Under the pieces are notes generated by a model. That model was not told where the DNA came from and made no database searches. It saw only the letters and a program-made list of their open reading frames with translations. The position numbers and the translations under genes are program-made. Shown one piece after another: positions 35,796-56,910 of a stretch of 64,000 nt of DNA; position 1 is the stretch's first letter, and the number at the start of each line of letters is the position of its first letter. This DNA comes from Symbiodinium natans. Taxonomy: Eukaryota; Sar; Dinophyceae; Suessiales; Symbiodiniaceae. The stretch covers positions 286,001 through 350,000 of the forward strand of contig CAJNDS010002064.1 in assembly GCA_905221605.1 (NCBI GenBank), given 5' to 3'.

Positions 35796-36200
35796 AAAAA
35801 ATTGTAGAAATAGGGTTCCTGGGGTCTGGGCTGTTGTGTGTTGCTGTGTCTGCTTCGTTTTTTACTTTTCATCACTGTCTCCCACTTGTTCTTAACCCTC
35901 GTCGCCTTATTCGTTTCTTATTTTCCTCGTCTGGGGTCTGTCTCACTCCTTGGGTCTCTGCTTCGTTTTGTTTAAAGCGTGTCTCATTCGTTTTCTCGCT
36001 TCTCTTCGTTAATCTTGGCCCTTACCTCCCCAACACTTTTTGACTTGTCCCTCTCATTCGTTTTGTCTTGGTTTGTCTCTAAGCTTAGCTGGGCTTTAGT
36101 TAGGCGGTTCGTAGAAAAGCCTAACATAAAGCCAAGATTGTAGAGCTTCGGGTTAGCCATTGGGTTAAGTTTTGGGTCTTTCTGGGGCTTAGTGGGTGGT
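35796..36200 (+). repeat. Left terminal inverted repeat of the viral element
   Basis: About 405 bp matching the reverse complement of 56417-56910 almost base for base, apart from an 88-bp segment missing here. The last 12 bp overlap the 3' end of the first viral gene. Confidence 0.95.
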
Positions 36201-36623
36201 TCTTTCTTTCCATTCTCCTATATCATTCCACATTCCCGCGATTGTCTTAAGTATTGATATTCTTAAATCATCGTTGTCTGTCATCTTTCTGAGTGCTTCA
36301 CGGAGAATACAAATATTAATATACATTGAACAAAAACCATTACGGTCATTAAACTGATTACCCACCTTTTCAACAATATTAACATTATCAATATTATTAT
36401 ACATTTCAATAATTCCGTCTTCGTCTTTTAACATCATAACAGCAAATAAAAGGTCAATACGTTCTTTTTTTCCTTCATCATTGTCTAGTATTGGTGTTTG
36501 CTTTTCTAAAAACTTGTCACTTGCTTTAACCCAGAATTCATGACCTCTGCTACTAAGTTGGTTTTTATTAATAAATTCTTTAATTTCTTGGGCTGTAGTT
36601 TCTCCTTCTAAAATCCATTGCAT
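36189..36623 (-). CDS. Viral hypothetical protein, paralogue A
   Basis: 144 aa from the ATG reading MQWILEGE. An upstream in-frame ATG (MHLKRK) was rejected because its first codons coincide with the ACTTAAAGA promoter motif. It aligns with the product of 37435-37863 around YxNI....I...G.Q.....G...M..N and a C-terminal W.D.GEW, so the two are diverged duplicates. No known fold recognised. Its stop lies in the left TIR edge. Confidence 0.7.
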   Translation of the reverse strand: MQWILEGETTAQEIKEFINKNQLSSRGHEFWVKASDKFLEKQTPILDNDEGKKERIDLLFAVMMLKDEDGIIEMYNNIDNVNIVEKVGNQFNDRNGFCSMYINICILREALRKMTDNDDLRISILKTIAGMWNDIGEWKERTTH

Positions 36624-36649
36624 CTTTACTAATATTACTAGTCTCTTTC

Positions 36650-36658
36650 TCTTTAAGT
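36650..36658 (-). promoter_or_regulatory. Motif ACTTAAAGA, 26 nt before paralogue A
   Basis: Same nine bases and similar distance as at 37374, 37889 and 53618. Likely an early-type viral promoter element. Confidence 0.55.
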
Positions 36659-36753
36659 GCATTATTTTTTATTGGGTGTCTGTTTCATTTTTATTTTTCA
36701 GATTTAAAACCATCATATTAACATTAATGATATTAATATCATGGTTGCTTCAT

Positions 36754-37344
36754 CTAAAAAATTGCTTGAACCCATTGTATAACTTTAATATAATTAAAAT
36801 AGTCTTTATATCCTCTGGCATGATGCTTTATGTATTGATAGAATAGATGTTTTAAAACATCATAGAAAGGCATTCTATCATTTCTATAATAAAAAAACTC
36901 ATCTTCTAGGTCAGTTTCATCAAAAATAGAATACCCATTAGCAGGACATGCTTCCGAAAACCATTGTTTATACTCATCAAACCCTTTCAGATAATAAGTG
37001 TCATTAACAAACTTTACAAGCATCCCTTTTTTACAGCTTTCCGACTTTCTAATCAATTCTTTCATATAGGTTTTCTTATCTTTCAATGTTTTTAGTTTGT
37101 TGTATTTGGTGTCTAGATGAGTGTAGATAAAATTAAACAACTTTGCCTCCCTACTATATTCTTTATATTCTTCCTTTTCATATTCTAACTCGTATTTCAT
37201 CATATCAGAACATATATGACAACTCAGATAAGATACAATGTTATTAACAGTTCCAGCATCAAAAACCAAATTTAAGACTACTGCCTTTCTATTCCTATGA
37301 CATTTACACACATAACAATTCTTATCAAAGTTAAACAAGCTCAT
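36754..37344 (-). CDS. Viral hypothetical protein with a four-Cys zinc-binding pattern
   Basis: 196 aa from MSLFNFDKNC; the frame is open further upstream but without an ATG. CYVCKC near the N terminus pairs with CHIC about 30 residues later, suggesting a zinc ribbon or treble clef. The rest is charged and helical, rich in Lys, Tyr and Asp. An ACTTAAAGA motif lies 29 nt upstream. Function unknown. Confidence 0.7.
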   Translation of the reverse strand: MSLFNFDKNCYVCKCHRNRKAVVLNLVFDAGTVNNIVSYLSCHICSDMMKYELEYEKEEYKEYSREAKLFNFIYTHLDTKYNKLKTLKDKKTYMKELIRKSESCKKGMLVKFVNDTYYLKGFDEYKQWFSEACPANGYSIFDETDLEDEFFYYRNDRMPFYDVLKHLFYQYIKHHARGYKDYFNYIKVIQWVQAIF

Positions 37345-37373
37345 GTTCTCTCTCAATATACTAGGGCGTTATG

Positions 37374-37434: not shown

Positions 37435-37863
37435 TTAAGGCATAAACACCCATTCACCCACTCCATCCCATCCTTCCTGTAGTTGTAACTTCATTGCAGA
37501 TACCATATCTTGTTTTTCAAACTTGGTTCTAGCTTTCTCATTCATTAGATAAATTAAAACTTCAAAGAATGCCCTAGCGTTATATTCCATTGTTTGAATA
37601 CCTCCTAATCCATCAATTTGTTCGCCGTTCTTCTTGAGTATTTCAGCATCTTCAATGTTTTCATATATCTCTTTTAGAAGTTTATGATTAGTATATCCAT
37701 ATTCAGAATGCATCATAAAGTAATACATTTTAAACTCTGCATCTCCTCTGTCGTGCCACTTTCTCGCCTTGTCCAGTATAAAGGCTTCCATAAACTCATA
37801 GGAAGGATACGGGTTTTTGTTGGTGAATGCCTTAATCTTTTTGACTTTCTCCGGGTCCATTCT
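37435..37863 (-). CDS. Viral hypothetical protein, paralogue B
   Basis: 142 aa from MDPEKVKKIK. The open frame extends upstream through TTG and the ACTTAAAGA motif, so the internal ATG is preferred. Related to the product of 36189-36623 (NIEDAEILKKNGEQ against NIDNVNIVEKVGNQ; GVGEW against DIGEW). Mostly helical. Function unknown. Confidence 0.7.
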   Translation of the reverse strand, partial: RMDPEKVKKIKAFTNKNPYPSYEFMEAFILDKARKWHDRGDAEFKMYYFMMHSEYGYTNHKLLKEIYENIEDAEILKKNGEQIDGLGGIQTMEYNARAFFEVLIYLMNEKARTKFEKQDMVSAMKLQLQEGWDGVGEWVFMP

Positions 37864-37888
37864 TAGCCTAATATAGTATAGTATTTTG

Positions 37889-37900: not shown

Positions 37901-38833
37901 TTAATCGTCAATTAATAAAATTTCGTGCCTGTTATATTTTTTACTCAATCCATCCAATATATAGTGTTTGTTTAGCTGACCATCTCTCCCTACTTCCTTC
38001 ACCTCATAGGTTCTATCACTCCATTGGTTCCTACTTTCTTTACGACTTGTATAGTTGCCCTTACCTTTAACAAATATTTTAACTTTGTCCCCGACCTCTA
38101 CCTTAGGATACTTGCGTAAATATTTTTCTTTTAAAACAGAGTTTGATTTTACTGTAAGATGGTTGTCGTCCTTGTGGGCTTCATTTGGTGTCATCCCAGT
38201 CGTTGAATGTTTCATTGTTTTATTATACTTGTCCAATGAAGGTTTCAATAAGATCGTCCAAGCCCCTTTAGTCACCAAAGCCCTATCGGTGATCATCTTC
38301 TTAATCGTCCTAATGGCTCTCTCTGCCACATTCGCATGAGTTAAAGTTACGATATGCTCAATACCTTCCCCTTTCAAAAAATCCTGAAACTTTTTATAAT
38401 TAAATGCCCCGTCATCATCTGAATAAATACTGTTAGGATAACCCATAACTTTAAAGCACTCCATAAACGCATCATACACCGTCTCACCGTCTCTGTTCTC
38501 CATAGGCACTATATGCATCTTCTTGCTAAAATTGTCAATGCATAACAAAGCGTATCTTTTATACTCCTCCTTGAAGGTGTCAGTGTCTTTCATCAAGCTT
38601 ACCATATCCATAATATCAACGCTAAAAACAGCCCTAGCATAAGGCGGGGAATAGCTATTATAATTCTTGTAGTTTCTTCTCTGATTGATGCTTTGCTTCT
38701 TCACCCAATCCTTAACATACTGCAAAGTGACACCCGCCCCATCTTTATTAGCTTCCTCATACAAACTTCTAACAGATCCATAACCGCGCTCAAGATCATA
38801 ATATATTTTCTCCAATATCTCATTAGCACTCAT
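37901..38833 (-). CDS. Retroviral-type DDE integrase (rve family)
   Basis: 310 aa. Polinton integrases process the TIR ends and join them to target DNA, duplicating a few bases. An N-terminal helical region precedes the catalytic core: first Asp in FSVDIMDM (about 73), second in YSDDDGAF (about 140), Glu in NVAERAIRTIKKM (171), a D-x30-E spacing. The C-terminal region VEVGDKVKIFVKGKGN ... KYNRHEILLIDD looks like an SH3/chromo-type DNA-binding domain. All three catalytic residues are present and the frame is unbroken. No ACTTAAAGA motif was found upstream, unlike its neighbours. Confidence 0.92.
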   Translation of the reverse strand: MSANEILEKIYYDLERGYGSVRSLYEEANKDGAGVTLQYVKDWVKKQSINQRRNYKNYNSYSPPYARAVFSVDIMDMVSLMKDTDTFKEEYKRYALLCIDNFSKKMHIVPMENRDGETVYDAFMECFKVMGYPNSIYSDDDGAFNYKKFQDFLKGEGIEHIVTLTHANVAERAIRTIKKMITDRALVTKGAWTILLKPSLDKYNKTMKHSTTGMTPNEAHKDDNHLTVKSNSVLKEKYLRKYPKVEVGDKVKIFVKGKGNYTSRKESRNQWSDRTYEVKEVGRDGQLNKHYILDGLSKKYNRHEILLIDD

Positions 38834-38863: not shown

Positions 38864-39238
38864 TTAACCATGTAAAACCTTCATAATGATTTTATCCTCT
38901 ATCTCCTTTTGTTTTCTATCTTCATAAACTCTTTTACACCTTTCACTGTTCTGATGCTTAGCTTTATTGCTAGTGCTACTTATGGTTTTACCACACCTTT
39001 CACACTCAAAACATTTATTATTTTTCTTAAAATATTCATTAAAATAACCTTCATTTTTATTCTTTTCATTCAACCTATCATTATAGACTTTCTTTTTCTG
39101 TTTCTTGATGATCTCCGAACTGTCGCTATCAGTTGTAGAAACATCATCACTCTCAAACGAGTTCCAAAGCAGGTCAAACAAATCGTCGTTTATTGTGGTT
39201 TTAATTCCATCATTGCCAACAAAGTAGTTAGTAGCCAT
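38864..39238 (-). CDS. Viral small protein with one C2H2-like zinc finger
   Basis: 124 aa. Finger at FECERCGKTISSTSNKAKHQ followed by RCKR (C-x2-C-x12-H-x5-C form). The N-terminal half is acidic and serine-rich (DDVSTTDSDSSE), the C terminus Lys/Glu-rich. A variant motif ATTTAAAGA lies 21 nt upstream. Possibly a DNA-binding regulator; function unknown. Confidence 0.7.
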   Translation of the reverse strand: MATNYFVGNDGIKTTINDDLFDLLWNSFESDDVSTTDSDSSEIIKKQKKKVYNDRLNEKNKNEGYFNEYFKKNNKCFECERCGKTISSTSNKAKHQNSERCKRVYEDRKQKEIEDKIIMKVLHG

Positions 39239-39302: not shown

Positions 39303-40631
39303 TCAAGCTAATCTTTCATAAACGGTCTCTCTATAAAGTTTCTGTAGTTGTCTCAAAGCGTTCTTTTTCTCAATTGGGTTACCCTTAGCAGATACCCATT
39401 GATTGTATAAACTTCTGTAGTTTCTATATGTGGTTTTTGAAATTGCATCTTTATTACCTGCATCTTCAAAGGTCTCTCTCAGTTTTTGTATTCCAATTTT
39501 ACTAGGCATTATCAAAGGTTGTAGGTTCTGTTCAGACCTAGGCGAAAAAGCATCTGCTCTAGCACTCTCTTTTAAATGCGTTTTTCTTGTCACCCTTCTT
39601 CTTGGCGGGGCTGGTCGTTCTTCTTCTGGTGGTGGCGGGGCGCGACCGCTTGAACTTGATGACCCACCTTGTTGAAAATTAGGTCTGGGTCTTGCTTTTG
39701 GGCGAAGTCTTGATGCAGAAGTTCCTACCTCTTGGAATCTTGCTTGTTCTGCCGGTGTGGGTTCGGGTTCTGGCGGTGAAGGTAACGCCAAAGGTTGTTG
39801 CGCTGGTGCAGGTAATGCTAACGGTTGTTGTGTCGGTCCAACATTTGGCTGATGCGGTTGAAGTATTAATGTCGGTCTTAACACTTGTGGATCAATCGGT
39901 TGTAGGTTTGGTAACGGCATTCTGGAGGCTCTATCAAAATCAAGTAGAGGTCGTTGTTCTGGTAAGATCCTTCTCATAACCGAACTGGCTACACCTTCCA
40001 AAGCGGGTTGTGCTACTCCTGCTATTACAGATGTGGCTAGATCTTGTCCCGATGCTAAATTTCCTGCGATGTTTCTTCCTACCGTTCCAACATTAGAAGC
40101 AACGTTACCGACTACACTTCTCCCAACATTAAATGTTCCCCGACCGATCCTTCTTAAAATTCCTTCCCCTTGTTCCTGTTCTTGTTCTAGCTGTTGTTGA
40201 TGCGCTTCGGCTATGGCTCCCTGATTTGCTTGTTGTGCCTCACCTGCTCTTCCTAAAACTCCTTCCAATTCTGCCCGTGTGTAATTTTGTTCTTCATCTA
40301 AATCTAGAAACTCTTCTGCTTCGGCGTTCTCTCCTTCCCTATCTCCGCCCATTTCTCTGAACAAGGCTCTGTGTGTCATTCCGTTCTCTTGTGCATACTG
40401 TCGCATCATGTGATCTCTCACCACTCTTTCGGCTATCCTGTTCTGTTCCACTTGCAACCTGTCCAAATGATCCCGACCGTCAAAATAGGATCCTTGATTA
40501 CTAGCCTTATAAAAAACCGCATCTCTGTTAGGAAACGGTCTTAGTGCTTCCTCGTTGTCATTAACCAGTTCTAAAATGTCTTCGTATCGGCTTCTGCGAT
40601 GAAATTGAATTTTAGAAGTTTTAAGTGACAT
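39303..40631 (-). CDS. Viral Gln/Pro-rich protein, possible minor virion component
   Basis: 442 aa. The N-terminal third is charged and helical with a Q/E run (QQLEQEQEQGEG). A hydrophobic Gly/Val/Ala segment (GRSVVGNVASNVGTVGRNIA) could be amphipathic or membrane-active. Then comes a long proline-rich region (PAPAQQPLALPSPPEPEP) and a basic C terminus. A TCTAAAT motif, shared with capsid and fibre genes, lies 16 nt upstream and suggests late expression. Adjacent genes are structural. No family recognised. Confidence 0.6.
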   Translation of the reverse strand: MSLKTSKIQFHRRSRYEDILELVNDNEEALRPFPNRDAVFYKASNQGSYFDGRDHLDRLQVEQNRIAERVVRDHMMRQYAQENGMTHRALFREMGGDREGENAEAEEFLDLDEEQNYTRAELEGVLGRAGEAQQANQGAIAEAHQQQLEQEQEQGEGILRRIGRGTFNVGRSVVGNVASNVGTVGRNIAGNLASGQDLATSVIAGVAQPALEGVASSVMRRILPEQRPLLDFDRASRMPLPNLQPIDPQVLRPTLILQPHQPNVGPTQQPLALPAPAQQPLALPSPPEPEPTPAEQARFQEVGTSASRLRPKARPRPNFQQGGSSSSSGRAPPPPEEERPAPPRRRVTRKTHLKESARADAFSPRSEQNLQPLIMPSKIGIQKLRETFEDAGNKDAISKTTYRNYRSLYNQWVSAKGNPIEKKNALRQLQKLYRETVYERLA

Positions 40632-40647: not shown

Positions 40648-40654
40648 ATTTAGA
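40648..40654 (-). promoter_or_regulatory. Motif TCTAAAT, 16 nt before the 442-aa gene
   Basis: Shared with the MCP, fibre and 69-aa genes; candidate late promoter element. Confidence 0.4.
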
Positions 40655-40991
40655 AAATTGCAGAACTTAATTTCTCCAACTTGTCATATCTGTTCTTCAA
40701 GTGTTCTAAGGATGTCTCGGGGATCCGTGGATTATGCATCTCCTCTCTCAGTCTGCTCATCTCCATCTCATAATTTGCTTTATGTTGCCCCTCTAACAGT
40801 CTGCGTTTCATAGCCATATTGCTGACATGTGCCTCTCTGGCTTCCAATTGCTTTTTTAGATTTAATAGATAGTCAATGTTAGGTTTATGAAAATTTAACT
40901 CTGATGCTTCATTTACTACGGGATTGTCTAATGACTTGCGTTTTTTCTGCTTTGCTTGTTGTCTGAACTTGTATTTATTATATAAAACCAT
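40650..40991 (-). CDS. Viral small basic coiled-coil protein
   Basis: 113 aa. Basic start (KYKFRQQAKQKKRKS), then a heptad-like helix (YLLNLKKQLEAREAHVSNMA and SLEHLKNRYDKLEKLSSAIF). It sits between the Pro-rich protein and the zinc/Pro-rich protein in the minus-strand structural block, with short spacers. Function unknown. Confidence 0.6.
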   Translation of the reverse strand: MVLYNKYKFRQQAKQKKRKSLDNPVVNEASELNFHKPNIDYLLNLKKQLEAREAHVSNMAMKRRLLEGQHKANYEMEMSRLREEMHNPRIPETSLEHLKNRYDKLEKLSSAIF

Positions 40992-41008: not shown

Positions 41009-41527
41009 CTAGATTTTTTTAGAGCGAGAATTGAACATTGCCTGACACATACTGTTGGCTTTCTCTTGTTTCCTTCTCATAATTTCTTGGTTCATTGTTC
41101 GCAATTGCAACTGAATGAGTTGTGCCTGGGTCAGATTGTCATAAGGTTGCATATTCGGAGGTGGAGGCGGCGGCATAGCCTTAGAAACTGGAGGTGGTGC
41201 TTTTATTATTGGAGCATTTGTTATTTCTTCATTGTTTTCTACACTTAATGGTTTTACCTTCACTTTTGACTTCACATTGTTTTTTCTAACGGGCTTAGAC
41301 ATTATGTCACTCGGCTTACCTTCGCACTTGTCGGGGTGGGAATATCTTAGAGTTTTCATATTCATCGGTTTCTTACAATCTCCGCACTCTGTCATTTGCT
41401 TCGCCACTTCCGTGATCTTTACTCTTGACGGTTTAGGCTCTGCTGTTACTTCTTCTTGGGGTTCTTTAGGCTCTTCTGGTTTAGGTGTTTCATCAACGGG
41501 TCCCATTTCAGATGCTTCTTCACTCAT
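41009..41527 (-). CDS. Viral Pro-rich protein with a Cys/His zinc motif
   Basis: 172 aa. Acidic/Pro/Glu N terminus, then ECGDCKKPMNMKTLRYSH followed by PDKC (C-x2-C-x12-H-x3-C), a plausible zinc finger. Basic KPVRKNNVKSKVKVK, a run of eight prolines, and a Gln/Met helix follow. Perhaps a nucleic-acid-binding virion or core protein. The TATA-like sequence ATATATAGAATATTATATATG lies around the start in pieces. Confidence 0.6.
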   Translation of the reverse strand: MSEEASEMGPVDETPKPEEPKEPQEEVTAEPKPSRVKITEVAKQMTECGDCKKPMNMKTLRYSHPDKCEGKPSDIMSKPVRKNNVKSKVKVKPLSVENNEEITNAPIIKAPPPVSKAMPPPPPPNMQPYDNLTQAQLIQLQLRTMNQEIMRRKQEKANSMCQAMFNSRSKKI

Positions 41528-41558: not shown

Positions 41559-42428
41559 TCAATCCATATCCTTATTATGAAAGAGCAAAGAAAAAGTAAC
41601 ATTTATATTATTTAAGTCTATAACGTTACCCGCCCCATCCATTATTCTAAAGGTTAACCTTTTAATATTTCTTTTAGACACATTTATATAATCATAATCT
41701 GTTATTCCATAGCTGTCACTGATAATACCCGCAAAGGGAGCATTGACCGGCACCTTCTTTATTATTGCATTTGAGAAAGCAGAAGGGCTATGAAAGTTAT
41801 TATTAGATAATTCGGGGCAGGATATATAAACGTCAGGATAATTGATCAAGTTAATAAATCCAGTCGTCCAAGGCGATGATGAAGTGAAGGCATCGCCAAC
41901 AGGTGTCGTGAAACCCAATACAGTATTAATGGAACTTAGATTGTTAAGATCTACAGAATTAGAGAAAGAACCAACAAAAGTAGGAACATCCGCATCAGTC
42001 AAGGGTATGAAGACGACTTCGCTATAATTAGACGATACGATAATTTTATTTGTTAAAGTGTCGTATGTAGCAGAATATGAGTTGGTTCTTCCCCCGCTGT
42101 CAAATAATGTGTTTAACTGTGTTTGTATTGCAGAAGCTAGATCCGGGGCGGTGTAGTTTCCCACGGGTATTTCAATTCTTCTGTATGTTATGCCTTGGGG
42201 CGTTGCAGGTGGCAATATCTGGTGTCTAAAGTATAGGTTCTGATTGTTCGTATTGATTGAATACCAAGCATTGGGGATAGCCACCTCATGCACTTGCATA
42301 ATGGTGTTGTCGGGTATTTCAAAGGTGTCCTGCAACTCTATTTTAAAGTCGGAAGATGATTTACTATCAGAGACTCTGTATTGGGAATTCACATAAACTT
42401 TCTTATAAGTTAAGGGTCTAAAGCTCAT
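41559..42428 (-). CDS. Penton / minor capsid protein candidate
   Basis: 289 aa. The N terminus VYVNSQYRVSD ... SDFKIELQDTFEIPDN ... VHEVAIPNAWYSIN is the pattern seen at the start of minor capsid (penton, single-jelly-roll) proteins of polinton-like viruses. The remainder is beta-rich, with YTAPDLASAIQTQLNTLF resembling the conserved middle of the same family. It is divergently arranged with the lipase gene, 42 bp apart, sharing a promoter region. Assignment is by remembered pattern. Confidence 0.75.
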   Translation of the reverse strand: MSFRPLTYKKVYVNSQYRVSDSKSSSDFKIELQDTFEIPDNTIMQVHEVAIPNAWYSINTNNQNLYFRHQILPPATPQGITYRRIEIPVGNYTAPDLASAIQTQLNTLFDSGGRTNSYSATYDTLTNKIIVSSNYSEVVFIPLTDADVPTFVGSFSNSVDLNNLSSINTVLGFTTPVGDAFTSSSPWTTGFINLINYPDVYISCPELSNNNFHSPSAFSNAIIKKVPVNAPFAGIISDSYGITDYDYINVSKRNIKRLTFRIMDGAGNVIDLNNINVTFSLLFHNKDMD

Positions 42429-42470: not shown

Positions 42471-43016
42471 ATGACGAGAATACAGTCACAGTTAGACAGA
42501 ATGCTAAAATCAAACGGCAAGATATCTAACACTCAAGGCATTAAGATGGCTTACGATCGTGATAATAAAATTTTTGTTAGAGATAATAAGATGTATATAG
42601 GAGGAACAACGAGTTTCACTAACTGGTTGGAAAATTTTACTAAGCTACCCTTTGGTGTTTTGGGAGGAGTCCGTGATATGGAACGCTACATAGAAGCAGA
42701 ACGAATATTAAAAGATAACCCACAAATAACAGAATTGGTCGGGCACAGTCAAGCGGGAGTGGTGGCGCTACAATTGGCGAAAGATTTTCCTGATAGGAAC
42801 TTGAGCACCAAAACTTACAACAGTCCCGTTTTTTCATTAGGCTTTGATCAACCGTCTGAACAACACAAGAGGTTCAGAAAAGTGGGCGATGTTGTATCGG
42901 CCTTTGATGGGTCAGCGATTAATTACAATACGGATACTTTGAACCCATTAAAGAATCACGACATATCTTCACTAGACAACATAGATGAAAGTATTCCAGA
43001 AAGGACTTTGTTTTAA
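42471..43016 (+). CDS. Lipase / alpha-beta hydrolase (class 3-like)
   Basis: 181 aa. The nucleophile elbow GHSQAG places Ser93; Asp140 (KVGDVVSAFDG) and His163 (KNHDIS) complete a likely triad with class-3-like spacing. The preceding strand/helix (AERILKDNPQITELV) fits the alpha/beta fold. The protein is shorter than cellular lipases and has no signal peptide. Placed at the head of the plus-strand structural block beside MCP, it may be a virion enzyme acting on host membrane lipid during entry or exit (inference). Confidence 0.75.
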   Translation: MTRIQSQLDRMLKSNGKISNTQGIKMAYDRDNKIFVRDNKMYIGGTTSFTNWLENFTKLPFGVLGGVRDMERYIEAERILKDNPQITELVGHSQAGVVALQLAKDFPDRNLSTKTYNSPVFSLGFDQPSEQHKRFRKVGDVVSAFDGSAINYNTDTLNPLKNHDISSLDNIDESIPERTLF

Positions 43017-43032
43017 TCTCTACTATTATAAT

Positions 43033-43266
43033 ATGATGTTTAATAAACCTAAACATATAAAAGAACCACATAGGGTTGGGAAACCGTCTGAAAGCCAAAA
43101 ATTTAAGAACAATTTAAACAAGAAACTAAATAATTCTGCTTACGAGAGCATTAGGAATATAATAGAAGAAGGGGACAATATAATGTCACAACCTCAGTTA
43201 GAGAAACAGAATAAAGACAATTTTAAAAGCCATAAAAAATATAGTAATAATAAAAATTCTAAATAA
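43033..43266 (+). CDS. Viral small basic protein
   Basis: 77 aa from MMFNKPKHIKEPHR. Very Lys/Asn-rich and hydrophilic, no Cys. Its stop lies 11 nt before the MCP start and overlaps the TCTAAAT motif of that gene. Could be a small virion or DNA-condensing protein; no family recognised. Confidence 0.55.
   Translation: MMFNKPKHIKEPHRVGKPSESQKFKNNLNKKLNNSAYESIRNIIEEGDNIMSQPQLEKQNKDNFKSHKKYSNNKNSK
43258..43264 (+). promoter_or_regulatory. Motif TCTAAAT, 13 nt before the capsid gene
   Basis: Overlaps the stop region of the preceding small gene. Confidence 0.4.
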
Positions 43267-48141: not shown

Positions 48142-48900
48142 TTAATCTAATTCAAAGCGTTGTTCAAAGTTAATGAAGAACATATTACTAACATCTTTAG
48201 CGTTGGTGTTTATGTAGAAGAACGAGTAAGGAGCAAAATTCACGGCTTTCTGATACATTTCGTATAATGTGCTTTTATCCACCAACGCGGAATTCTCTTC
48301 CAAAAATGCATTGACCTCGTTCATATTCTTCAGTCTAAAAATAAACAAAGCAGATGCGTTTAACCTAATGATCGGGGCCAATACATTATACTTCTGCGTG
48401 GATAAAATGCACGAGATGGCATTATGACGACCCCTAGTGAATAACCCGTGTAACAAGCTTGAGTATCTTACAAATTTGGGATCGTCGGCGAAATCATCCA
48501 CCACTAACAGAATGCTAAACAGATCCTTTTGTTTATTCTTCTTCTGAAAATCAATTACTTTATGTTGGGTGTCTATGATCTTCTTTAGCACCACCGGATC
48601 GTATTCCTCGTAGTAAAGCTGTTCTTTTTCGGCATCCACCTTCATTACGTCCTTTATGTATTTCTTTACTGCCGACCAAGTGTCATCCACATGAACACTG
48701 GGCGAGAAGATGTATATTCTTTCAAAGGATCCTCTGTAAATTTTTAATATCAAGTTCTGGATCAATACTGTTTTACCGCCCGTTGAAGAAGCCACGCATA
48801 ACATCCGCGCGGGTAGCTTCGGCATCATGTCAAACTTGCTGTTTTTATATTTATATTCGGGTATGTCTATCGGTTCTACTTTAGGTATTTCTTCACTCAT
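48142..48900 (-). CDS. A32-type genome packaging ATPase (FtsK/HerA superfamily)
   Basis: 252 aa. Walker A is ASSTGGKT (37-44), Walker B ILLVVDDFADD (about 129-139), and the sensor-like ISCILSTQKYN follows at the expected distance. Size and layout match packaging ATPases of polintons, virophages and large DNA viruses, which pump the genome into the capsid. The gene is divergent from the small plus-strand genes at 48933, with a 32-bp shared promoter region. Confidence 0.9.
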   Translation of the reverse strand: MSEEIPKVEPIDIPEYKYKNSKFDMMPKLPARMLCVASSTGGKTVLIQNLILKIYRGSFERIYIFSPSVHVDDTWSAVKKYIKDVMKVDAEKEQLYYEEYDPVVLKKIIDTQHKVIDFQKKNKQKDLFSILLVVDDFADDPKFVRYSSLLHGLFTRGRHNAISCILSTQKYNVLAPIIRLNASALFIFRLKNMNEVNAFLEENSALVDKSTLYEMYQKAVNFAPYSFFYINTNAKDVSNMFFINFEQRFELD

Positions 48901-48932: not shown

Positions 48933-49079
48933 ATGGATAAGTATTTAGAAACGATAGAGGAGATTGAAGAAATTGAGAAGATTGTAATACAAGATACCAA
49001 GCTTAAAAGGTGTTGCACCGCTTCTTTAGAATTGTTTAAAGCAGTTCTTGAGTATTTAAAAAAATCTAAGAAAGGTTAA
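48933..49079 (+). CDS. Viral micro-protein, 48 aa
   Basis: Short frame MDKYLETIEEIEEIEKI ... KRCCTASLELFKAVLEYLKK, strongly helical. Its TAA overlaps the ATG of the next gene by one base, which supports expression together. No family recognised. Confidence 0.5.
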   Translation: MDKYLETIEEIEEIEKIVIQDTKLKRCCTASLELFKAVLEYLKKSKKG

Positions 49080-49435
49080 TGAGCGATAATAAATCAAACG
49101 AAGGTGGCTTCCACTTAAACACGGATGGATTAAACTGTTTGCCTTGCAAGTGTAGGAAGAAGACTTTTCACAAAGAGACTAAGATAAACACCGAAGGTAA
49201 AACAGTCATTGAAGATCGGAGTTCTTGGAAGGTTGGCGGTAGAGGAGTTACTCCAGACGAAAATGAAATATTTAAAACTAACGCGCAAGATAATGAAGGT
49301 GTTGATACGGTTACCACCGGATGGGGATCAAGAAAGCCCACCCCGGAAGAGAGGTTAGAAAAAGTGGAGGAGGATGTTGAAAGGATAGACAAAGATGTAA
49401 CTATTTTAAAAAATAATTTAAATATGATGGATTAA
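49079..49435 (+). CDS. Viral hypothetical protein
   Basis: 118 aa. LNCLPCKCRKK near the N terminus may bind metal; a Gly/Thr-rich middle is followed by a coiled coil (ERLEKVEEDVERIDKDVTIL). Overlaps the stop of the 48-aa gene upstream. Function unknown. Confidence 0.6.
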   Translation: MSDNKSNEGGFHLNTDGLNCLPCKCRKKTFHKETKINTEGKTVIEDRSSWKVGGRGVTPDENEIFKTNAQDNEGVDTVTTGWGSRKPTPEERLEKVEEDVERIDKDVTILKNNLNMMD

Positions 49436-49657: not shown

Positions 49658-49879
49658 ATGCCAGTAAAAGTAGATAAGATATCAGTTGATTTTGATCCAT
49701 ATACTGAAACAGCTAATGTTGTTACCAGGAAGTGTTACCGTTGTAAGCAAGTCAAAGACATAGATTGTTTCAAGCGTGTGTATATAGTTAGTAAGAAACA
49801 TTATAATAATTGTTCTGTTAAATACACCTTGACTTGTTCAGAATGTTTAGATAATCATACTATAGAGAAATGTCCATAA
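49658..49879 (+). CDS. Viral zinc-ribbon protein, 73 aa
   Basis: CYRCKQVKDIDCF and TCSECLDNH form a C-x2-C ... C-x2-C zinc ribbon, a common small regulator type in large DNA viruses. The 3' end overlaps the convergent polymerase gene by 25 bp. Confidence 0.65.
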   Translation: MPVKVDKISVDFDPYTETANVVTRKCYRCKQVKDIDCFKRVYIVSKKHYNNCSVKYTLTCSECLDNHTIEKCP

Positions 49880-52800
49880 GGCAAACTATTAACACTATCT
49901 ATATAGTATCTCTTGTTGTCAAAGCTTGACAGTGCTTGTTTAACTTGGTTGATCGTATAAATGTTATGGTTCTTACTCCTTATACTGTTAAACTCAACTT
50001 TATCGGATCTGTTTTCCTTCAGTGTCTCTTCATATTGTTTATAATTCAGTTCTTTCTTGACTTTGTGCTTCACTATTCCCTTTGATTTTTTCTCTTCCTT
50101 CTCTTGGTTATATACCTTAAAAGCATACGATTTAGGCTTTAACCCTATGAAGTGGGTTATTATCTTGCCGTCGCATTCATCTTTAAATTTCCCCAATACT
50201 TTCTTGTTAGTAGGATCATAACATTTATGGCTCTTGTCATATCCGCTGAAGTCCATCTGATCGCCGATCTCCTTTAAATCGTCATATACATCTTCCGTTT
50301 TAATATGAACTACGAAGCTGTCTGTGTCGGTGTATGCCAACCTGACCTTTTCATTATACTTCTCTTTAAGAACATCATAATAAAACGAATACATATGCAA
50401 CTTACTAAGATCTAGGATGCTCATACCGACATATATAGGCTTGTTTAGCTTGACCGTTGCTTTTAACTTCTCTACCCCAACAAGGTTTTCATTAATTATG
50501 TGCCTGTGCTTGAAGGTCGGTTTATTTACACATTTTTGGTATCTCTCGGGTGTATCTACCAGTTCAAAGTCAATGTGTTCTCTTACATTTTCCATAGTTT
50601 TTCCGTAACAAGCGTTGTTCATTAATTTATACATATCCTTCTCAAAGTCCGATGTGGCCTTTTTTCTCTTCTCAGTGTTGAAGTCAATCCAAGGCTTTAA
50701 CCATTCTTTTTGTTTGAATGTTATCACCTTATTAACTTTCTTGAGTTTCATACCCTGTTGTAAATAATATTTTAAGATGTTGATGTGAAGAACATAATTA
50801 GATTTATCCCTTACATTTAAGATGAGCTTATTTGTTTGTTCATCTTTGGGCTCCTTGTCTTGGTGGTAGGCTTTATATGTTTCTTTCTGCTTCTCACTTA
50901 ACATGTCGGCCGTTACATTCATGATCTCCGGAGCCAGTGGGTAGTCAATGTGTTTGTCGTGCAGTTCTTTAGGATACTCCAGATCAACATCAAGAATATA
51001 GCCTTGCTCATTGTTATCATAATTCAGTATCTCGTCAGATGTTATATCGGAACTGTTTATAAATTTTATGTCTTTATAAGGTAACTTCATTGACATAGCC
51101 AAACCATATAAATTATTAGCGTCTAAGTATAAAATGTAAGATGATTGTTTTTCTTTGTCATATAAATCTGTCATATACTTGTTGTTGGCTTCTACTTTTC
51201 TGACAGACACCTGCGTCATACCACCTCGTAAGCCTCTCTCAATCATCTTATAAATCTCCTCGTCGTGGATCAGATCTAGTTGTATTCCTGTTCTTAATAG
51301 CATAGCGTCCCAACTAAAATTAGGCAAGGTGATATAATGGGCTGGGTCAAGCTTGTAATCTTCTAGGCACATCTTCCTGAAGTTCTCAAAGACATCGGTT
51401 AATAATAACACATCTGTTTGAAGATATAAATCGTGATACTGTCCTAGGTTTTTAATTTTAAAGTGTTCCCATATCTTAAGTGCCCTTTCGTATTCGGTGT
51501 CTTTGATACCTTCCTCTGTTAGCTTACTGTAAAAGGCTTCTTTACTTGGTAGCTGTGTATCATTAAATTTATTGAAGTCGGTAAAGTAGTCGTAAGGATA
51601 AACGCCCTTGTCTGTTAAAAGATCCAAGTCTTCATCGTTGGTTATATATACGCTTTTCTTACTGTTATAAAAATTATTCTGCCAGTTCTCCCTCTTCTCG
51701 TCATTCTCATATTTAGTTAGTTTCACAAGCTTGTCTAAAGAAGACGACAAGAAGCTGAAGCTGTCCTTAAACTCAAGTTGATTAATTGAGAAAGTAATGA
51801 ATTTTTCGCTGTTCTGTGCTATAACATTTATTTTATCTTTGTCTGCGTTTAGCTTCTCCATATTTGATATTATTAAGTGGGCGTCGTAGTTCTTAAGGTT
51901 ATGAAAGAAGACCGGGATCTTGAAATATTTAAAACAATAATCCAAGTTACATTTGTTGTGTGCCGCTCCTCTATATACACCGGTGAAGTGACAGTGGTCG
52001 GCCACCTTCGTTTTAGCCGGGTCGTTGTTGTCAAACTTGCCATTACATAAGAAACAATGCTTAGCCTTCTTGTGTTCTTCTTTTTGTTTAGCCGACCATT
52101 GTATTGGTTTATTTTCTTTCATTTTTTCCATAATTTCGTTCTTGATCTTGTTTATTGTTATACAGAACCTTTCCATACAATCTTCGCCCCTGTATAAATA
52201 AGGTGTTGCTTCGTTGGTTATGCTATTAACGACATTTAACATAAAACCGCAAGGCTGATGATGTTGATAAGCCCCTTTTATTCCTTGGGTTGTTGGTGTT
52301 GTCAGACACTCAAAGTCGCCATATATGACATAAGGACATTTTAATTTTTTGTAGTGATTTTTGAAGAACATCTTTTCGTCTTCCTTCGGCATCTTCGTTT
52401 GTTGAACTTCGTTCGCCATGCATCCCTTTATTAGGTGATTGTTCAATAACTTCTCATTAGTGAAACCGTGCTGACAATACATACAATGAAACACCTTTCC
52501 TTTGTATTTGTTAGTTTGTGCTCCCATTAACTTGTTGTAGTCTTTTATTAAAACATAATGATTATAATTGTCTCGTTCTAAAAGCAATAAGTTAATGTGA
52601 CACGATGGCTTACTAATTTTAGTTACTCTATCTACTACTATGGTGTTTGTTCCGTTTGGATCAATGGCATAAACATTCACTGATATGGTATTTTTATTGA
52701 TTTCTTCAAAGTGTTCTATGTCTGAAAGCGTAGCTGGAAATTCAACATCATCCCAATTGATTATCCCGTCCTTTAGGCTTCTATAATGATACATTCTATC

Positions 52801-53598
52801 GGGGTGGTCCTTCTTCATTATTTCATAAAACTTTGCTTGAACACAATATTTGAAACATAGCTCGTCGTCATTCTTAATATTAATACAAGCCTTTTTATCT
52901 GCTATCCACTTGGGTAACTCAATATATTTACCTGCCCTTGTTGGGTTGTATCTGTCATAATGTATGGTGATCTTTTCAATCTTCTTTATTTGGTAGCCCG
53001 ACTTTTTCAGTTGTGAGTTCTCAATCTTTATTTCTATGTCGGATGCCATATTGTCTATTGTTGTTTTTAGTTCTTCGTGGTTGTTGATCGTATAAATTCT
53101 ACTAGGTATTCTGTGTATTTGTGGTTCTTCGTGTTCTGGGTGTCTAAAAGAAATATCTACATCTACTCTGATTTTCATATTGTTGTTTCGCGTTAAAAAC
53201 TCTTTCAGTCTCGGTTCTTGGTATTTTAAATAGGATAAGCCCTTGTAGCCTTGAAGGTTAATGTTAGTTATTGAATATGAGTTGGCATATCGTTTAAATG
53301 CGCTTCGTTCCTCTGTAATGGTGGCTTTCTGTGTAATTGCGTATTTCTTCAAAGCTTTCCTAACTGCTATGCCTTTGGTTGCACGTTTTAATATGTTGTA
53401 TCGTTTAAAATCCTGTGTTTTGGCTATTTGTTCTAGTTTTGTTTTTAGTTTGGTGGCTATGGGCTTTTCCCTATTATAATAATATTCTCTGTCATTTATT
53501 ATAACCTTTTTGTAGGTTTTGTTATTTCGGGTTTTAATGTTGCCCGTGCCACTGCTTAATACATATTCTAACACATTTCGTAATTCCCCTTGCTCCAT
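49855..53598 (-). CDS. Protein-primed family B DNA polymerase
   Basis: 1,247 aa. The exonuclease domain has YGDFECL (ExoI, about 426), FHNLKNYDAHLI (ExoII, about 565) and LQTDVLLLTDVF (ExoIII, about 725). The polymerase domain has YLDANNLYGLAM (motif A, about 823), LMNNACYGKTMEN (motif B, about 993) and AYTDTDSFVVHI (motif C, about 1088). Between N terminus and palm lie a C2H2-like FHCMYCQHGF and a Cys/His cluster CFLCNGKF ... DHCHFTGVYRGAAHNKC resembling endonuclease VII-type zinc sites, common in polinton polymerases. The roughly 400-residue N-terminal extension may include the terminal-protein function. All catalytic motifs are intact. An ACTTAAAGA motif lies 19 nt upstream. Confidence 0.95.
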   Translation of the reverse strand: MEQGELRNVLEYVLSSGTGNIKTRNNKTYKKVIINDREYYYNREKPIATKLKTKLEQIAKTQDFKRYNILKRATKGIAVRKALKKYAITQKATITEERSAFKRYANSYSITNINLQGYKGLSYLKYQEPRLKEFLTRNNNMKIRVDVDISFRHPEHEEPQIHRIPSRIYTINNHEELKTTIDNMASDIEIKIENSQLKKSGYQIKKIEKITIHYDRYNPTRAGKYIELPKWIADKKACINIKNDDELCFKYCVQAKFYEIMKKDHPDRMYHYRSLKDGIINWDDVEFPATLSDIEHFEEINKNTISVNVYAIDPNGTNTIVVDRVTKISKPSCHINLLLLERDNYNHYVLIKDYNKLMGAQTNKYKGKVFHCMYCQHGFTNEKLLNNHLIKGCMANEVQQTKMPKEDEKMFFKNHYKKLKCPYVIYGDFECLTTPTTQGIKGAYQHHQPCGFMLNVVNSITNEATPYLYRGEDCMERFCITINKIKNEIMEKMKENKPIQWSAKQKEEHKKAKHCFLCNGKFDNNDPAKTKVADHCHFTGVYRGAAHNKCNLDYCFKYFKIPVFFHNLKNYDAHLIISNMEKLNADKDKINVIAQNSEKFITFSINQLEFKDSFSFLSSSLDKLVKLTKYENDEKRENWQNNFYNSKKSVYITNDEDLDLLTDKGVYPYDYFTDFNKFNDTQLPSKEAFYSKLTEEGIKDTEYERALKIWEHFKIKNLGQYHDLYLQTDVLLLTDVFENFRKMCLEDYKLDPAHYITLPNFSWDAMLLRTGIQLDLIHDEEIYKMIERGLRGGMTQVSVRKVEANNKYMTDLYDKEKQSSYILYLDANNLYGLAMSMKLPYKDIKFINSSDITSDEILNYDNNEQGYILDVDLEYPKELHDKHIDYPLAPEIMNVTADMLSEKQKETYKAYHQDKEPKDEQTNKLILNVRDKSNYVLHINILKYYLQQGMKLKKVNKVITFKQKEWLKPWIDFNTEKRKKATSDFEKDMYKLMNNACYGKTMENVREHIDFELVDTPERYQKCVNKPTFKHRHIINENLVGVEKLKATVKLNKPIYVGMSILDLSKLHMYSFYYDVLKEKYNEKVRLAYTDTDSFVVHIKTEDVYDDLKEIGDQMDFSGYDKSHKCYDPTNKKVLGKFKDECDGKIITHFIGLKPKSYAFKVYNQEKEEKKSKGIVKHKVKKELNYKQYEETLKENRSDKVEFNSIRSKNHNIYTINQVKQALSSFDNKRYYIDSVNSLPYGHFSIV

Positions 53599-54597
53599 TT
53601 ATGTATAAGTCGTTTTTTCTTTAAGTATTTTTGCCTGGGGTTTTGCGTTGGCGCTTTGGGTTTGTTGGCTTGGGGTTTCAACGTTTCCCTCGGGTTGGTG
53701 TTTCAAAAGTACCTCCTTTATAAATACGATTTTAAAAATTGATGTTTTTTATTTTTTCGCTTGTTTTTGTCAGTGTTTTCCCTATGTTTTGTTTGTGTTT
53801 TGGTGTTTTTATGTGTGGTAGTGTGAAGTGTTTTTGTGTGATCCTAGGGCCAAGGCGGACAGAAAAAAAAGTCGCTAGACTTTAAAAATAGTGGTGTTTT
53901 GACCCCGAGCGCCTGAAAAGGCGAAGTAAAAACAAAAAATCCTAAACCCTAAAACCCTAAACCCTAAATACTAAACCCTACAGCCCTAAATCCTAAACTG
54001 AAAGACCCGAAAGTCCCGAAAGTCCCGAAAGTCCCGAAAGTCCTAAACCCTACAACCCCAAACCCTAACGCAGACGAACTGAGGGCGGAGCAGAACCACT
54101 AAACTAAATAACCCTAAACCCTAAACCCTGGACGAAGACACTCTGAGGTCATCGCAATGCTTAAACTGTCGGATTTCCCTGTCCGCTTTAGTTCTGAGAT
54201 GTTTGTTTGATCCAACTCTCTGAGCCGATCCTTTTCCCGAAGTTATGAAAAGTTATGAAACAAACCCTAAACTAAATAACCCTAAAAAACCCCAAACCCC
54301 GAAAGGAAGGACGCACCGCTTGTCTAGAACTTCTCGCAGTCAATGCTGTTGATGAACACATTCACCTGTCACGCACTCATTAACGGGAAGTCACCATGAA
54401 TGAAGAACGTTTCAGAAATGAAGCTGTCAGACCTTGTTTTGCAACTCTCACCGCCTCGCCTGTGAAGTGCCCTGCGGTTTGAGAACAGATACTACACTTG
54501 ACTTGATGCTCACAGCCAAAAGCCGTTTACCGCATCGTTGCACACAGCGCGGAAGCCTCAAGCGATAAGGACTGGGATAATCTGAAGCAGTGCCCCG
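53599..54597. other. Junction from viral core to host-like right arm
   Basis: 53599-53930 is G/T-rich on the + strand and without a gene. 53939-54125 holds degenerate CCCTAAA units and, at 54001-54045, four CCCGAAAGT nonamers. 54126-54597 is GC-balanced with no convincing ORF; AGTTATGAAA occurs twice (54242, 54252). Confidence 0.6.
53618..53626 (-). promoter_or_regulatory. Motif ACTTAAAGA, 19 nt before the polymerase gene
   Basis: Identical nonamer, here directly upstream of PolB. Confidence 0.55.
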
Positions 54598-54796
54598 CCT
54601 AAATCGGCGATTGAAGCCCGGCTAATCACCGATTGTCTTTTTTAATACTAAAATCAATAGAAAAGCCCCTAATCGCCGATTAGATGCCCCTAAATCTAAA
54701 AGGTTATGGTGTCTAATCTGAAAAGCGCCCCCTGCCTAATCTGAAAAGTCAGCCCGTCTAATCTGAACATGCTCCCCCACCTAATCGCTGATTGAG
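54598..54796. repeat. Cluster of CTAATC(N)GATT and CTAATCTGAAAAG words
   Basis: At least seven related words: AATCGGCGATT, CTAATCACCGATTG, CTAATCGCCGATTAG (palindromic), three of CTAATCTGAA(AAG), and CTAATCGCTGATTG. They end 10 bp from the stop of the spliced gene at 54807. Could be protein-binding sites or a degenerate repeat. Confidence 0.65.
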
Positions 54797-54806
54797 CCCT
54801 CCCGCT

Positions 54807-56182
54807 TCACTTGGACGGTTTCATTTGAACGTCCTCCTTCTTTGCGATCGTCATCAAAAGCTTCTCCGACAAAGATGCCCACGAAATATTGGTGTTTGCG
54901 TCTGCAAACTCGGAGCAAACAAACAGGTAGATGGTGTGGGTCAGCATCTCCTTGGCTTTGTTGTGCTGATACTCCATCTCCTCCAGCTTTGCATGGATGC
55001 TCTCATAGGAGATCTCACTCATCAGACGGCAACGTTCGAAGGGCTTCGCCGATGATGCCACCACCTCCGTGTTGATGCGGACGAGTGCCTCCTTGTTCAA
55101 GGAGTTCATCAGCATTTCGGCGAGATTGGGTGTCTTGCTTCTGATATGCCCGACTGCCTCCTTGCCGATGTTCTTGACCTGCTCCACCACGGGCGACGCC
55201 GAACCAGCGAAGCTGATGCGGTGGATGTTGTTGTTGATCTCCTCCAAGCACTCCTTGATGGACATTGCCTTTGTCTTCGCTCCTGCCGACCCAGCCGCCT
55301 AGGCTTGTTTATGGTTTAGGTTTTAGGGCTGTAGGGTTTTAAGGTTGTTTTAACATAGGTAAAATAAGGAAACAGTAGTAAAGGCACTCGTTTGCCACCA
55401 CCAGCCAAGGAAAACTTCACAGCGACGCGACTGCCTTCGCACAAGTCCTTGTAGTAGGCAATCGTTCTGCGAGGAACTTCCGTCACATTGACAGTATCCA
55501 AGTAAAGGCTCATCTTCTTCGTGGCCTTCTTGCTCATTCCCATCACCTTTGTCCCAACCAACAAGCGGAACTCCCCAGTCGTCATGCCCTTGCTCAACTC
55601 AAACTGAACCACCGTGGCGTCGGGCAACACAAGGGACACCTTGAAGGTCTGCTCCTTCTCCTCCTTGTTCTGCTTTGCTTTCTCCTCCTTGTCTTTGGCT
55701 TTCTTTGCTTCGCGACGCTTCTTCTTCTGCTCATTGTCAGCCTTGCGGATTGCCTTCTGTGTGGCGGAGAGAAGTTTGTTGTAGTAAGTCATCCTTGCCT
55801 GAAGAACCTTCTGCAACTTCATGACATCCACGTCGCCTTGCTCTAGGTAGGTGGCAACCTCTGAGTCGTACCACTTCTCATCGTAGCCCTCAAAGGTTGC
55901 CAAGGTCATAATCTTCTCCATCTCAGCGCCGTCAATCTCTGCGATGATGTCGACCTCCAAGGCCGGGGCGTCATCATCGGGCTTGTCGTCATGATCATGG
56001 AAGTTGTGCGACTGAGCATCGGGACTTGTGGGCTCTGCCTTGTCTTCCTCGGTGTCAATTGCCTCGGTGTCTGAAGAACCATCAGAAGAACTCTCAGCCT
56101 CGCTCACAGCATCACCGACTGCCACTGGCGGATGCTCTGGGTCGTAGCCACTGGAAGAAGCGGCTTTGCTCATGGATGCCAT
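54807..56182 (-). CDS. Host-type spliced gene inside the viral TIRs: ubiquitin-like domain fusion protein
   Basis: Exons 56182-55388 and 55298-54807 (intron 55299-55387) join in phase 0 into 428 aa. The N terminus is acidic and Ser-rich (SEAESSSDGSSDTEAIDTEE). A Lys/Glu helix (NEQKKKRREAKKAKDKEEKA) leads to a region reading like ubiquitin: VSLVLPDATVVQFELSKGMT as the first hairpin and RTIAYYKDLCEGSRVAVKFS then LAGGGKR as the last strand and glycine tail. The second exon gives a C-terminal helical domain (SIKECLEEINNNIHRISFAG, FERCRLMSEISYESIHAKLE). If cut after GGG, a Ubl modifier and a separate domain would be released (inference). GC-rich codon use differs from the AT-rich viral genes. Confidence 0.7.
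55299..55387 (-). other. Intron of the host-type gene in the right arm
   Basis: 89 nt, GT-AG; donor after GGCAAACGA, acceptor CCTAG. Contains CCTACAGCCCTAAAACC and CTAAACC words, i.e. telomere-like units, as in other host introns here. Reading through it would give an artificial 23-residue tail. Confidence 0.75.
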
Positions 56183-56416
56183 CACTGCAAATGGCAAGTC
56201 TCAAGACACAAAAGCAGGAAGGCTCAATGTTTGGGCACAGTTGCTTCAATCAAGAATAAGGTCGCTCATGTTCCACTGCTTCGGTGCAAATGCCACAAGC
56301 AACTCAGACTGACCAAGTGTCTGCAAAACGACCTGAATGAACCCCTAAACAAGCAAGGCGCACCGTTTCATCTTGACGAAGTCGTCAATGTTTCCAATCT
56401 TTGCTTAGAATAGTTA

Positions 56417-56910
56417 CTACCGCCCACTAAGCCCCAGAAAGACCCAAAACTTAACCCAATGGCTAACCCGAAGCTCTACAATCTTGGCTTTATGTTAGGC
56501 TTTTCTACGAACCGCCTAACTAAAGCCCAGCTAAGCTTAGAGACAAACCAAGACAAAACGAATGAGAGGGACAAGTCAAAAAGTGTTGGGGAGGTAAGAG
56601 AGGGGAAAAGTGAAAACGAGAGAGGGGCGACAAATACTTAAATGAGAGTATGGGATCCTGGGGAGTGAGAGAAAAACGAAGGAGGGGCCAAGATTAACGA
56701 AGAGAAGCGAGAAAACGAATGAGACACGCTTTAAACAAAACGAAGCAGAGACCCAAGGAGTGAGACAGACCCCAGACGAGGAAAATAAGAAACGAATAAG
56801 GCGACGAGGGTTAAGAACAAGTGGGAGACAGTGATGAAAAGTAAAAAACGAAGCAGACACAGCAACACACAACAGCCCAGACCCCAGGAACCCTATTTCT
56901 ACAATTTTTT
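56417..56910 (-). repeat. Right terminal inverted repeat of the viral element
   Basis: About 494 bp. It contains an extra 88 bp (about 56600-56688, AGAGGGGAAAAGTG ... AACGAAGGAGG) absent from the left TIR; otherwise nearly identical. Open frames inside it occur in both TIRs and are not taken as genes. Confidence 0.95.

What the first reader, a model, noticed from the sequence alone, without database searches (positions are those of the whole stretch)
35796..56910. Apparently intact 21-kb polinton-like virus in a dinoflagellate-type genome, inserted into a G homopolymer
Seen: matching TIRs with AAAAAATTG ends, G runs directly abutting both ends, and unbroken integrase, PolB, ATPase, capsid and fibre frames. 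Known: polinton integrases make short target duplications. Inference: the target was a poly-G tract, so the duplication is GGGGG(G). Near-identical TIRs and open genes suggest recent insertion.
Basis: partly seen in the sequence, partly recalled or inferred. Interest (0 to 1): 0.9.

Follow-up and report, generated by a model that had tools for sequence, protein, structure and literature searches.

The report
Polinton-like virus targeting G tracts
A 21-kb virus-like element in a dinoflagellate alga's genome, and all 14 sister copies found with both ends, sit inside runs rich in the single base G, so the element's predicted integrase likely seeks out such runs, which would be an unusual way for a virus to choose where it lands.

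Summary
Confirmed and extended. Window 35796-56910 (21,115 bp) is a polinton-like virus (PLV) integrated in a dinoflagellate genome, inferred to be Symbiodinium natans. It has TIRs identical apart from one 87-nt indel, and open frames for an rve-type integrase, a protein-primed-type PolB, an A32-like ATPase, an S74 fibre and a capsid protein whose model matches double-jelly-roll capsids. PLVs in dinoflagellates are known in thousands. The new point is the target. A TIR search of the same assembly gave 14 more copies with both TIRs; with the window, 15 of 15 have a run of G (or C, same strand) within 8 nt of both ends, against 2,987 of 199,200 control positions (1.5%). One copy lies in a satellite whose intact neighbouring units show the empty site: a pre-existing C6 run, duplicated by 5 bp. 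So the tracts are targets with a 5-bp duplication. Three copies share it at the same end, three others have other GC-rich open frames there, and no close copy was found outside PLVs. Which protein recognises the tract is inferred, not shown.

The parts
35591..35795 (+). left G tract (target), interrupted poly-G
35796..36203 (.). left TIR (INT side)
36189..36662 (-). ORF, 157 aa, no family
36754..37344 (-). ORF, 196 aa; matched in five of the sister-copy pieces (27-95% aa)
37435..37860 (-). ORF, 141 aa, no family
37901..38833 (-). rve-type integrase, 310 aa; D73, D139, E171 conserved (catalytic assignment mine)
   Evidence: Pfam rve 5.2e-09; Ty3 Gag-Pol chain 5.3e-06; NCBIfam IS481 3.9e-14 but below its cut-off; conservation in 121 sequences
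38864..39238 (-). ORF, 124 aa, weak C2H2-like zinc finger
   Evidence: below cut-off
39303..40631 (-). ORF, 442 aa, no family
40650..40991 (-). ORF, 113 aa, no family
41009..41527 (-). ORF, 172 aa, no family
41559..42428 (-). candidate minor capsid (penton) protein, 289 aa; by position and recalled resemblance only
   Evidence: no family hit above cut-off; single-sequence model useless, pLDDT 34.8
42471..43016 (+). alpha/beta-hydrolase-like (lipase-like) ORF, upstream of MCP; 24% identical to the part before the capsid in gene model Skav204780
   Evidence: (below cut-off)
42985..43266 (+). ORF, 93 aa, overlaps the previous one
43278..44744 (+). major capsid protein, 488 aa, double-jelly-roll fold predicted
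44792..47197 (+). fibre-like protein, 801 aa, C-terminal Peptidase_S74 chaperone
   Evidence: Pfam 3.4e-07; PHROG tail fibre 1.6e-13
47486..48130 (+). ORF, 214 aa, no family
48142..48900 (-). A32-like packaging ATPase, 252 aa
   Evidence: Pfam Pox_A32 7.5e-12; PHROG terminase 8.5e-16
49079..49435 (+). ORF, 118 aa, no family
49855..53598 (-). family B DNA polymerase of the protein-primed type, 1247 aa, motifs present
   Evidence: Pfam DNA_pol_B_2 8.3e-12; DFE, DANNLYG, KLMNNACYG, YTDTDS
53850..56418 (.). segment of host-like composition (GC 0.49; TTTAGGG-type heptamers 5.8% of bases)
54807..55298 (-). cargo gene exon 2 (161 of 163 residues identical to P0124)
55299..55387 (-). cargo gene intron, 89 nt, GT...AG (inferred from P0124; no transcript seen)
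55388..56182 (-). cargo gene exon 1 (156 of 241 aligned residues identical to P0124)
56419..56910 (.). right TIR (PolB side), with 87 nt (56599-56685) that the left arm lacks
56911..56968 (+). right G tract (target); first 5 G taken as the duplication

Best explanation
This is an integrated polinton-like virus in a dinoflagellate inferred to be Symbiodinium natans, and its predicted rve-type integrase (with or without a partner) likely picks poly(dG):poly(dC) tracts, joins the two viral ends to them across a 5-base stagger, and so leaves the element between two G runs on the same strand. Shown: element anatomy, 15 of 15 copies in G/C tracts, the same base on both sides, one empty site with a 5-bp duplication, and a GC-rich gene next to the PolB-side TIR in three copies. 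Inferred: that the integrase does the choosing; that the gene's intron is spliced and that the gene came from a host; that the virus replicates by protein priming and packages DNA into a double-jelly-roll capsid.
For: Anatomy. Target: a TIR search of the same assembly gave 61 matches, among them 14 further copies with both TIRs; borders read. 15 of 15 have a run of 4 or more G (or C, same base both sides) within 8 nt of both ends; control 2,987 of 199,200 positions in 20 regions of 10 kb from the same genome, 0.015^15 = 4e-28. A direct repeat of 5 bp or more fits in 15 of 15, against 0.41 per site expected without duplication (1.6e-6 for all), or 0.55 per site (1.2e-4 for all) if only positions with the same base abutting on both sides are taken; at most 5 bp in six copies. 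Empty site at C1181: intact units GGGCCCCCCGCTC, occupied unit GGGCCCCCC | element | CCCCCGCTC. All 15 keep the AAAAAT terminus at both ends. No two copies share the same flank at the same offset; shared flank sequence is dispersed repeats. Either orientation occurs (10 of 15, p = 0.30, orientations entered by hand). Integrase: D73, D139, E171 conserved in 118/119, 121/121, 120/121; dN/dS 0.03 between the window and C2100 copies. Cargo.
Against: No direct evidence that the integrase itself reads G tracts; a host factor, chromatin or DNA breaks could supply the choice. The criterion (run of 4 within 8 nt) was set after I had seen the borders; a stricter one, 10 of 20 bases on both sides, is met by 13 of 15 against 2.7% of controls, and 14 of 20 by 8 of 15 against 0.4%. 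The 5-bp fit lets the terminal A/T run vary from 5 to 9. At C1181 removing 5 nt gives the best score (266) but 4 and 6 nt score nearly as well (263, 264), because neighbouring units differ slightly. Control regions were picked by hand at round coordinates, on contigs with TIR matches. Six contigs with single or partial TIR matches were left out of the 15. All copies come from one TIR query and are one family; other PLV lineages of this genome were not tested because the search machine did not answer.
Confidence: 0.8

Rival explanations
1. Breaks in G tracts (for example at stalled, folded G-rich DNA) are filled by viral DNA through end joining; the integrase plays no part in site choice.
For: All 15 sites are G/C tracts, which are break-prone by general knowledge (recalled).
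Against: A 5-bp duplication at the C1181 empty site and a possible repeat of at least 5 bp in 15 of 15 fit a staggered cut by an integrase; end joining would be expected to give variable loss or filler. All 15 keep the AAAAAT terminus at both ends.
Confidence: 0.1
2. Insertion is random and only copies in harmless G tracts survive.
For: Flanks hold many repeats, and the copies differ in age (TIR identity to the window's 70-100% where matched).
Against: 15 of 15 against a 1.5% background would need nearly all other sites to be intolerant. Other repeat DNA is plentiful (telomere-like heptamers cover 14% of the left flank), yet none of the 15 copies lies in it without a G tract.
Confidence: 0.05
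3. Assembly error: G tracts are misjoined around virus contigs.
For: Homopolymers are hard to assemble; no reads were available here.
Against: 15 loci on different contigs, G or C but the same base on both sides, tract lengths from a C6 site to over 100 nt, and the C6 site is matched by intact satellite units. Sequencing poly-G artefacts at the two outward ends would be expected to give opposite bases on one strand (inference).
Confidence: 0.02
4. The GC-rich gene segment is not cargo but a chance host insertion, or the element is a composite of two copies around a host gene.
For: GC and codon usage are those of frames in the host flanks; the TIR arms differ by 87 nt.
Against: The same gene sits at the same end of the copies on C2100 (96% identical DNA over 1,487 nt) and C1815 (98% over 550 nt), and no other close copy was found in the genome.
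Confidence: 0.1

Closest known systems
Dinoflagellate PLVs ('Dino group' of Bellas et al. 2023, PMC10120064; S. kawagutii polinton shown in PMC12721341)
   Same: Same host group; capsid, ATPase, PolB, integrase and TIRs; the S. kawagutii example is 21.2 kb by its printed coordinates; MCP 41-43% identical to three gene models named Skav, taken to be S. kawagutii
   Different: The window's MCP falls in a 7-row clade (support 100) apart from the rows named Skav; the passages read mention no G-tract target and no terminal gene with an intron
Oxyrrhis marina OmPLV (PMC12721341)
   Same: Dinoflagellate PLV with TIRs and low GC against a GC-rich host
   Different: OmPLV has a tyrosine recombinase, no target duplication and a helicase-PolB fusion (Results part 1 read)
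Cryptophyte PLVs with rve integrase (PMC12220804)
   Same: rve integrase with short target duplications
   Different: Typically 6-bp duplications; no homopolymer target in the passages read; a GAGGG match in other clusters was judged spurious there
Mavirus-like elements (EMALEs) of Cafeteria (PMC8547959)
   Same: rve integrase, TIRs, duplications of mostly 3-5 bp; retrotransposons nest in them
   Different: The authors found no evidence of sequence-specific integration (passage)

Membership tests
Polinton-like virus | double-jelly-roll major capsid protein | tested here: met
Polinton-like virus | packaging ATPase | tested here: met
   Pox_A32 7.5e-12
Polinton-like virus | minor capsid (penton) protein | tested here: inconclusive
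   candidate 41559-42428; no family hit, model too poor
Polinton-like virus | maturation protease | tested here: inconclusive
   no maturation-protease match among the 19 ORFs scanned with Pfam
Polinton-like virus | protein-primed PolB or primase-helicase | tested here: met
   DNA_pol_B_2 8.3e-12 and motifs
Polinton-like virus | rve integrase or tyrosine recombinase | tested here: met
   rve 5.2e-09
Polinton-like virus | TIRs of hundreds of bp, 14-40 kb length, short duplication | tested here: met
   21,115 bp; arms about 405 and 492 bp; 5-bp duplication
Dino group of PLVs (Bellas 2023) | MCP in the published Dino cluster | tested here: inconclusive
   relatives named Skav at 41-43%; the published cluster itself was not at hand
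Adintoviruses (animal) | adintovirus MCP/PolB/penton lineage | not tested
   only a fold match to one adintovirus entry in the viral library

The most novel reading that the evidence does not exclude
A lineage of DNA viruses has evolved an integration machine that reads a homopolymer: it inserts only into poly(dG):poly(dC) tracts of its dinoflagellate host with a 5-bp stagger, a safe-harbour strategy kept across copies whose TIRs have drifted to about 70% identity. It also keeps a cargo slot next to the PolB-side TIR, in which interchangeable GC-rich genes of host style, one of them with a spliceosomal intron, are carried from site to site.
Probability: 0.6. Interest if true: 0.85.

Novelty: new variant of a known kind. 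Interest (0 to 1): 0.76.

Why it matters
To my knowledge (recalled) polintons, PLVs and virophages with rve integrases are described as inserting without sequence choice; for Cafeteria elements the authors say so (PMC8547959, passage). A family confined to G tracts would be a rare DNA-virus case of homopolymer targeting, could help to explain how thousands of such elements pile up in dinoflagellate genomes with little damage, and can be tested at once on published dinoflagellate assemblies. Interchangeable GC-rich genes at one end would make these viruses gene carriers within and perhaps between algae.

Tried and rejected
IMG/VR scans with the MCP, an MCP alignment and the TIR end gave no relative; the one TIR-end match (L001) is a 19-mer in unrelated DNA. 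GTDB genome contigs with the MCP alignment: none. Spliced-leader relics: none in the window. Rfam at gathering thresholds: none. Penton model from a single sequence: useless. Host-capture by one copy alone and composite element: rejected once C2100 and C1815 proved to carry the same gene. Junction repeat CAAGGCG (7 nt) flanking the cargo: about what chance gives by my count. Strand polarity of the G tract relative to the element: no significant bias. My first idea that P0124 was the host original of the cargo was wrong: P0124 lies inside the C2100 virus copy. Six contigs with single or partial TIR matches (C29, C1031, C1986, C174, C2156, C576) were read but left out of the 15: C1986, C174, C1031 and C2156 have G- or C-rich DNA near the end, C29 and C576 not clearly. 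Other PLV lineages of this genome, by integrase and MCP, could not be searched. Fold searches: the absence of other families says nothing.
Full report
Observation. The element spans 35796-56910 (21,115 bp). Both TIR ends read AAAAAATTG from outside inward, and both are abutted by G runs on the + strand. The arms are identical at about 400 aligned columns; the right arm has 87 nt that the left lacks. GC is 0.348 in the core against 0.535 and 0.545 in the flanks. The 16 virus-type ORFs counted cover 90% of 36201-53800.

Host. The window is G000:C1752:286001-350000 of a 759-Mb assembly. Contig C2100 of that assembly is 2,263,071 long, the length listed for protein P0124, named by its source as Symbiodinium natans, and P0124 is 100% identical to the C2100 frames. 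The host is therefore inferred to be S. natans, a dinoflagellate of the Symbiodiniaceae (taxonomy). Telomere-like TTTAGGG heptamers cover 14% of the left flank.

Target. A search of the same genome with the left TIR gave 61 matches, among them both ends of 14 further elements (the left end of C1181 and both ends of C1907 were located from inner matches). I read all 28 borders. With the window, 15 of 15 have a run of at least four G, or four C, within 8 nt of both ends, the same base on both sides. In 20 control regions of 10 kb from the same genome, 2,987 of 199,200 positions meet the rule (1.5%). The rule was set after seeing the borders; with 10 of 20 bases on both sides it is 13 of 15 against 2.7%, with 14 of 20 it is 8 of 15 against 0.4%. 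Six further contigs with single or partial matches were read and not counted; four of them are G- or C-rich near the end, two not clearly. Flanks of different copies share dispersed repeats: telomere-like arrays, a 51-nt unit beside such an array (C2323 and window, opposite orientation) and an inverted-repeat element of about 100 nt (C1761 and C2100); no two copies share a flank at the same offset, so they look like separate insertions. The tract G lies on the INT-to-PolB strand in 10 of 15, so orientation appears free (p = 0.30).

Duplication. A direct repeat of at least 5 bp fits in 15 of 15 if the terminal A/T run may vary between 5 and 9. Without duplication 41% of control tract positions would do so (1.6e-6 for all 15), or 55% of those with the same base abutting on both sides (1.2e-4). 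In six copies 5 is the maximum (AGGGG, TCCCC, GGGGG, CCCCA, CCCCC, CCCCC). The clearest case is C1181, inside a satellite: intact neighbouring units read GGGCCCCCCGCTC, the occupied unit GGGCCCCCC, element, CCCCCGCTC. Taking out 5 nt gives the best alignment score, 4 and 6 nt nearly as good ones, since the units differ by single bases; but the unit in the left flank itself reads AAGTAAAGGGCCCCCCGCTCTCGGG, which is exactly the occupied unit less CCCCC. So the tract was there first, and six C are enough.

Cargo. Between PolB and the right TIR, 53.85-56.42 kb has GC 0.49 and exon GC3 0.67-0.76; virus ORFs have GC3 0.24-0.49 and four long frames in the host flanks 0.67-0.81. Its two ORFs are the exons of one gene, as P0124 shows by joining them: exon 2 is 161 of 163 identical, exon 1 156 of 241. 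The intron is 89 nt, GT...AG, and conserved as 88 nt in C2100. P0124 itself is the copy inside the C2100 element. In the whole-genome search close copies were found only on C2100, C1815 and in the window, all inside PLVs at the same end; ten weaker matches (24-28%) include C1761 and C1820, also in PLVs, and eight of unknown context (only the best candidates are scored there). At the PolB side, C2323, C1761 and C1820 also have GC 0.53-0.54 and open frames across the whole 551 nt fetched, of other sequence; the nine remaining copies show no such segment in what was fetched (5.5-kb ends for four, 551 nt per end for five). Exon 2 is under constraint between window and C2100 (dS 0.092, dN 0.005). 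Whether the gene came from the host is inferred from composition and intron only.

Mechanism. Most likely the integrase, which keeps its acidic residues D73, D139 and E171 in 118 of 119, 121 of 121 and 120 of 121 sequences (where five other acidic residues are as conserved), joins both virus ends to a G tract across 5 bp. The triad is my assignment. Tract recognition by the integrase, by a partner, or by tract structure is not resolved.

Literature. Thousands of PLV capsid genes in a dinoflagellate are known (PMC10120064, passages and section 7), also OmPLV (PMC12721341, outline and Results part 1), Maverick enrichment at dinoTAD boundaries in Breviolum (PMC11071213, passages), rve-type duplications of typically 6 bp in cryptophytes (PMC12220804, passages), no sequence preference of Cafeteria elements (PMC8547959, passages), PLVs in Karenia blooms (PMC13037468, passages), and TTTAGGG telomeres of dinoflagellates (PMC11453091, passages). 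No listed paper in searches was seen to describe G-tract targeting by such elements; most were seen only as listings, and only openly licensed papers are held.

Verdict. A real, otherwise ordinary member of a known kind with an unusual and now well supported target choice, and a cargo slot that I did not meet in the passages read.

Noticed in passing
window 1-35590 and 56969-64000: 63 perfect arrays of three or more TTTAGGG units lie in the window, none in the element; the heptamers cover 14% of the left flank.
   Followed up: partly
window 56599-56685, right TIR: 87 nt present in the right TIR arm only; the TIR matches of sister copies also split near this place in the search.
   Followed up: partly
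window 37901-38833: Integrase has 31 residues between the second D and the E (35 in retroviruses, recalled), and its best NCBIfam match is IS481 transposase, below cut-off.
   Followed up: no
window 49855-53598: PolB carries a weak Endonuclease VII-like stretch (residues 502-552, just below the Pfam cut-off), between the exonuclease motif and the polymerase domain.
   Followed up: no
window 58313-58440: A run of C is directly followed by a long run of G (about 128 nt in all), an unoccupied tract 1.4 kb from the element.
   Followed up: no
window 59404-60996: Open frame with a Major Facilitator domain (5.6e-24) to the right of the element.
   Followed up: no
window 15171-18589: Three consecutive long frames on the + strand, the first with a SAM domain and the third with a RING finger.
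   Followed up: no
window 10833-11475: 21-nt minisatellite (TTACTGGGCAAGGTCATTTTT) with an inverted block in the middle.
   Followed up: no
G000:C1761:505630-506658 and G000:C1820:187047-187523: Distant relatives (26%) of the cargo protein in long frames at the same end of other PLV copies; C1761 shares the GGGKR motif with P0124.
   Followed up: partly
window 43278-44744 and 55316-56182: The nearest MCP cluster (P0001, 96%) stands for 272 member sequences, far more than the 15 paired copies found here; and P0121, identical to the window's exon-1 ORF, is listed on a contig of 262,609 bases while C1752 has 713,935. Neither is explained; a second assembly is one possibility.
   Followed up: no
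L013 39-139 and L034 (right flank of C2100): An inverted-repeat element of about 100 nt (TTGGGATGTT...AACATCCCAA-like ends) is shared by flanks of two copies.
   Followed up: no
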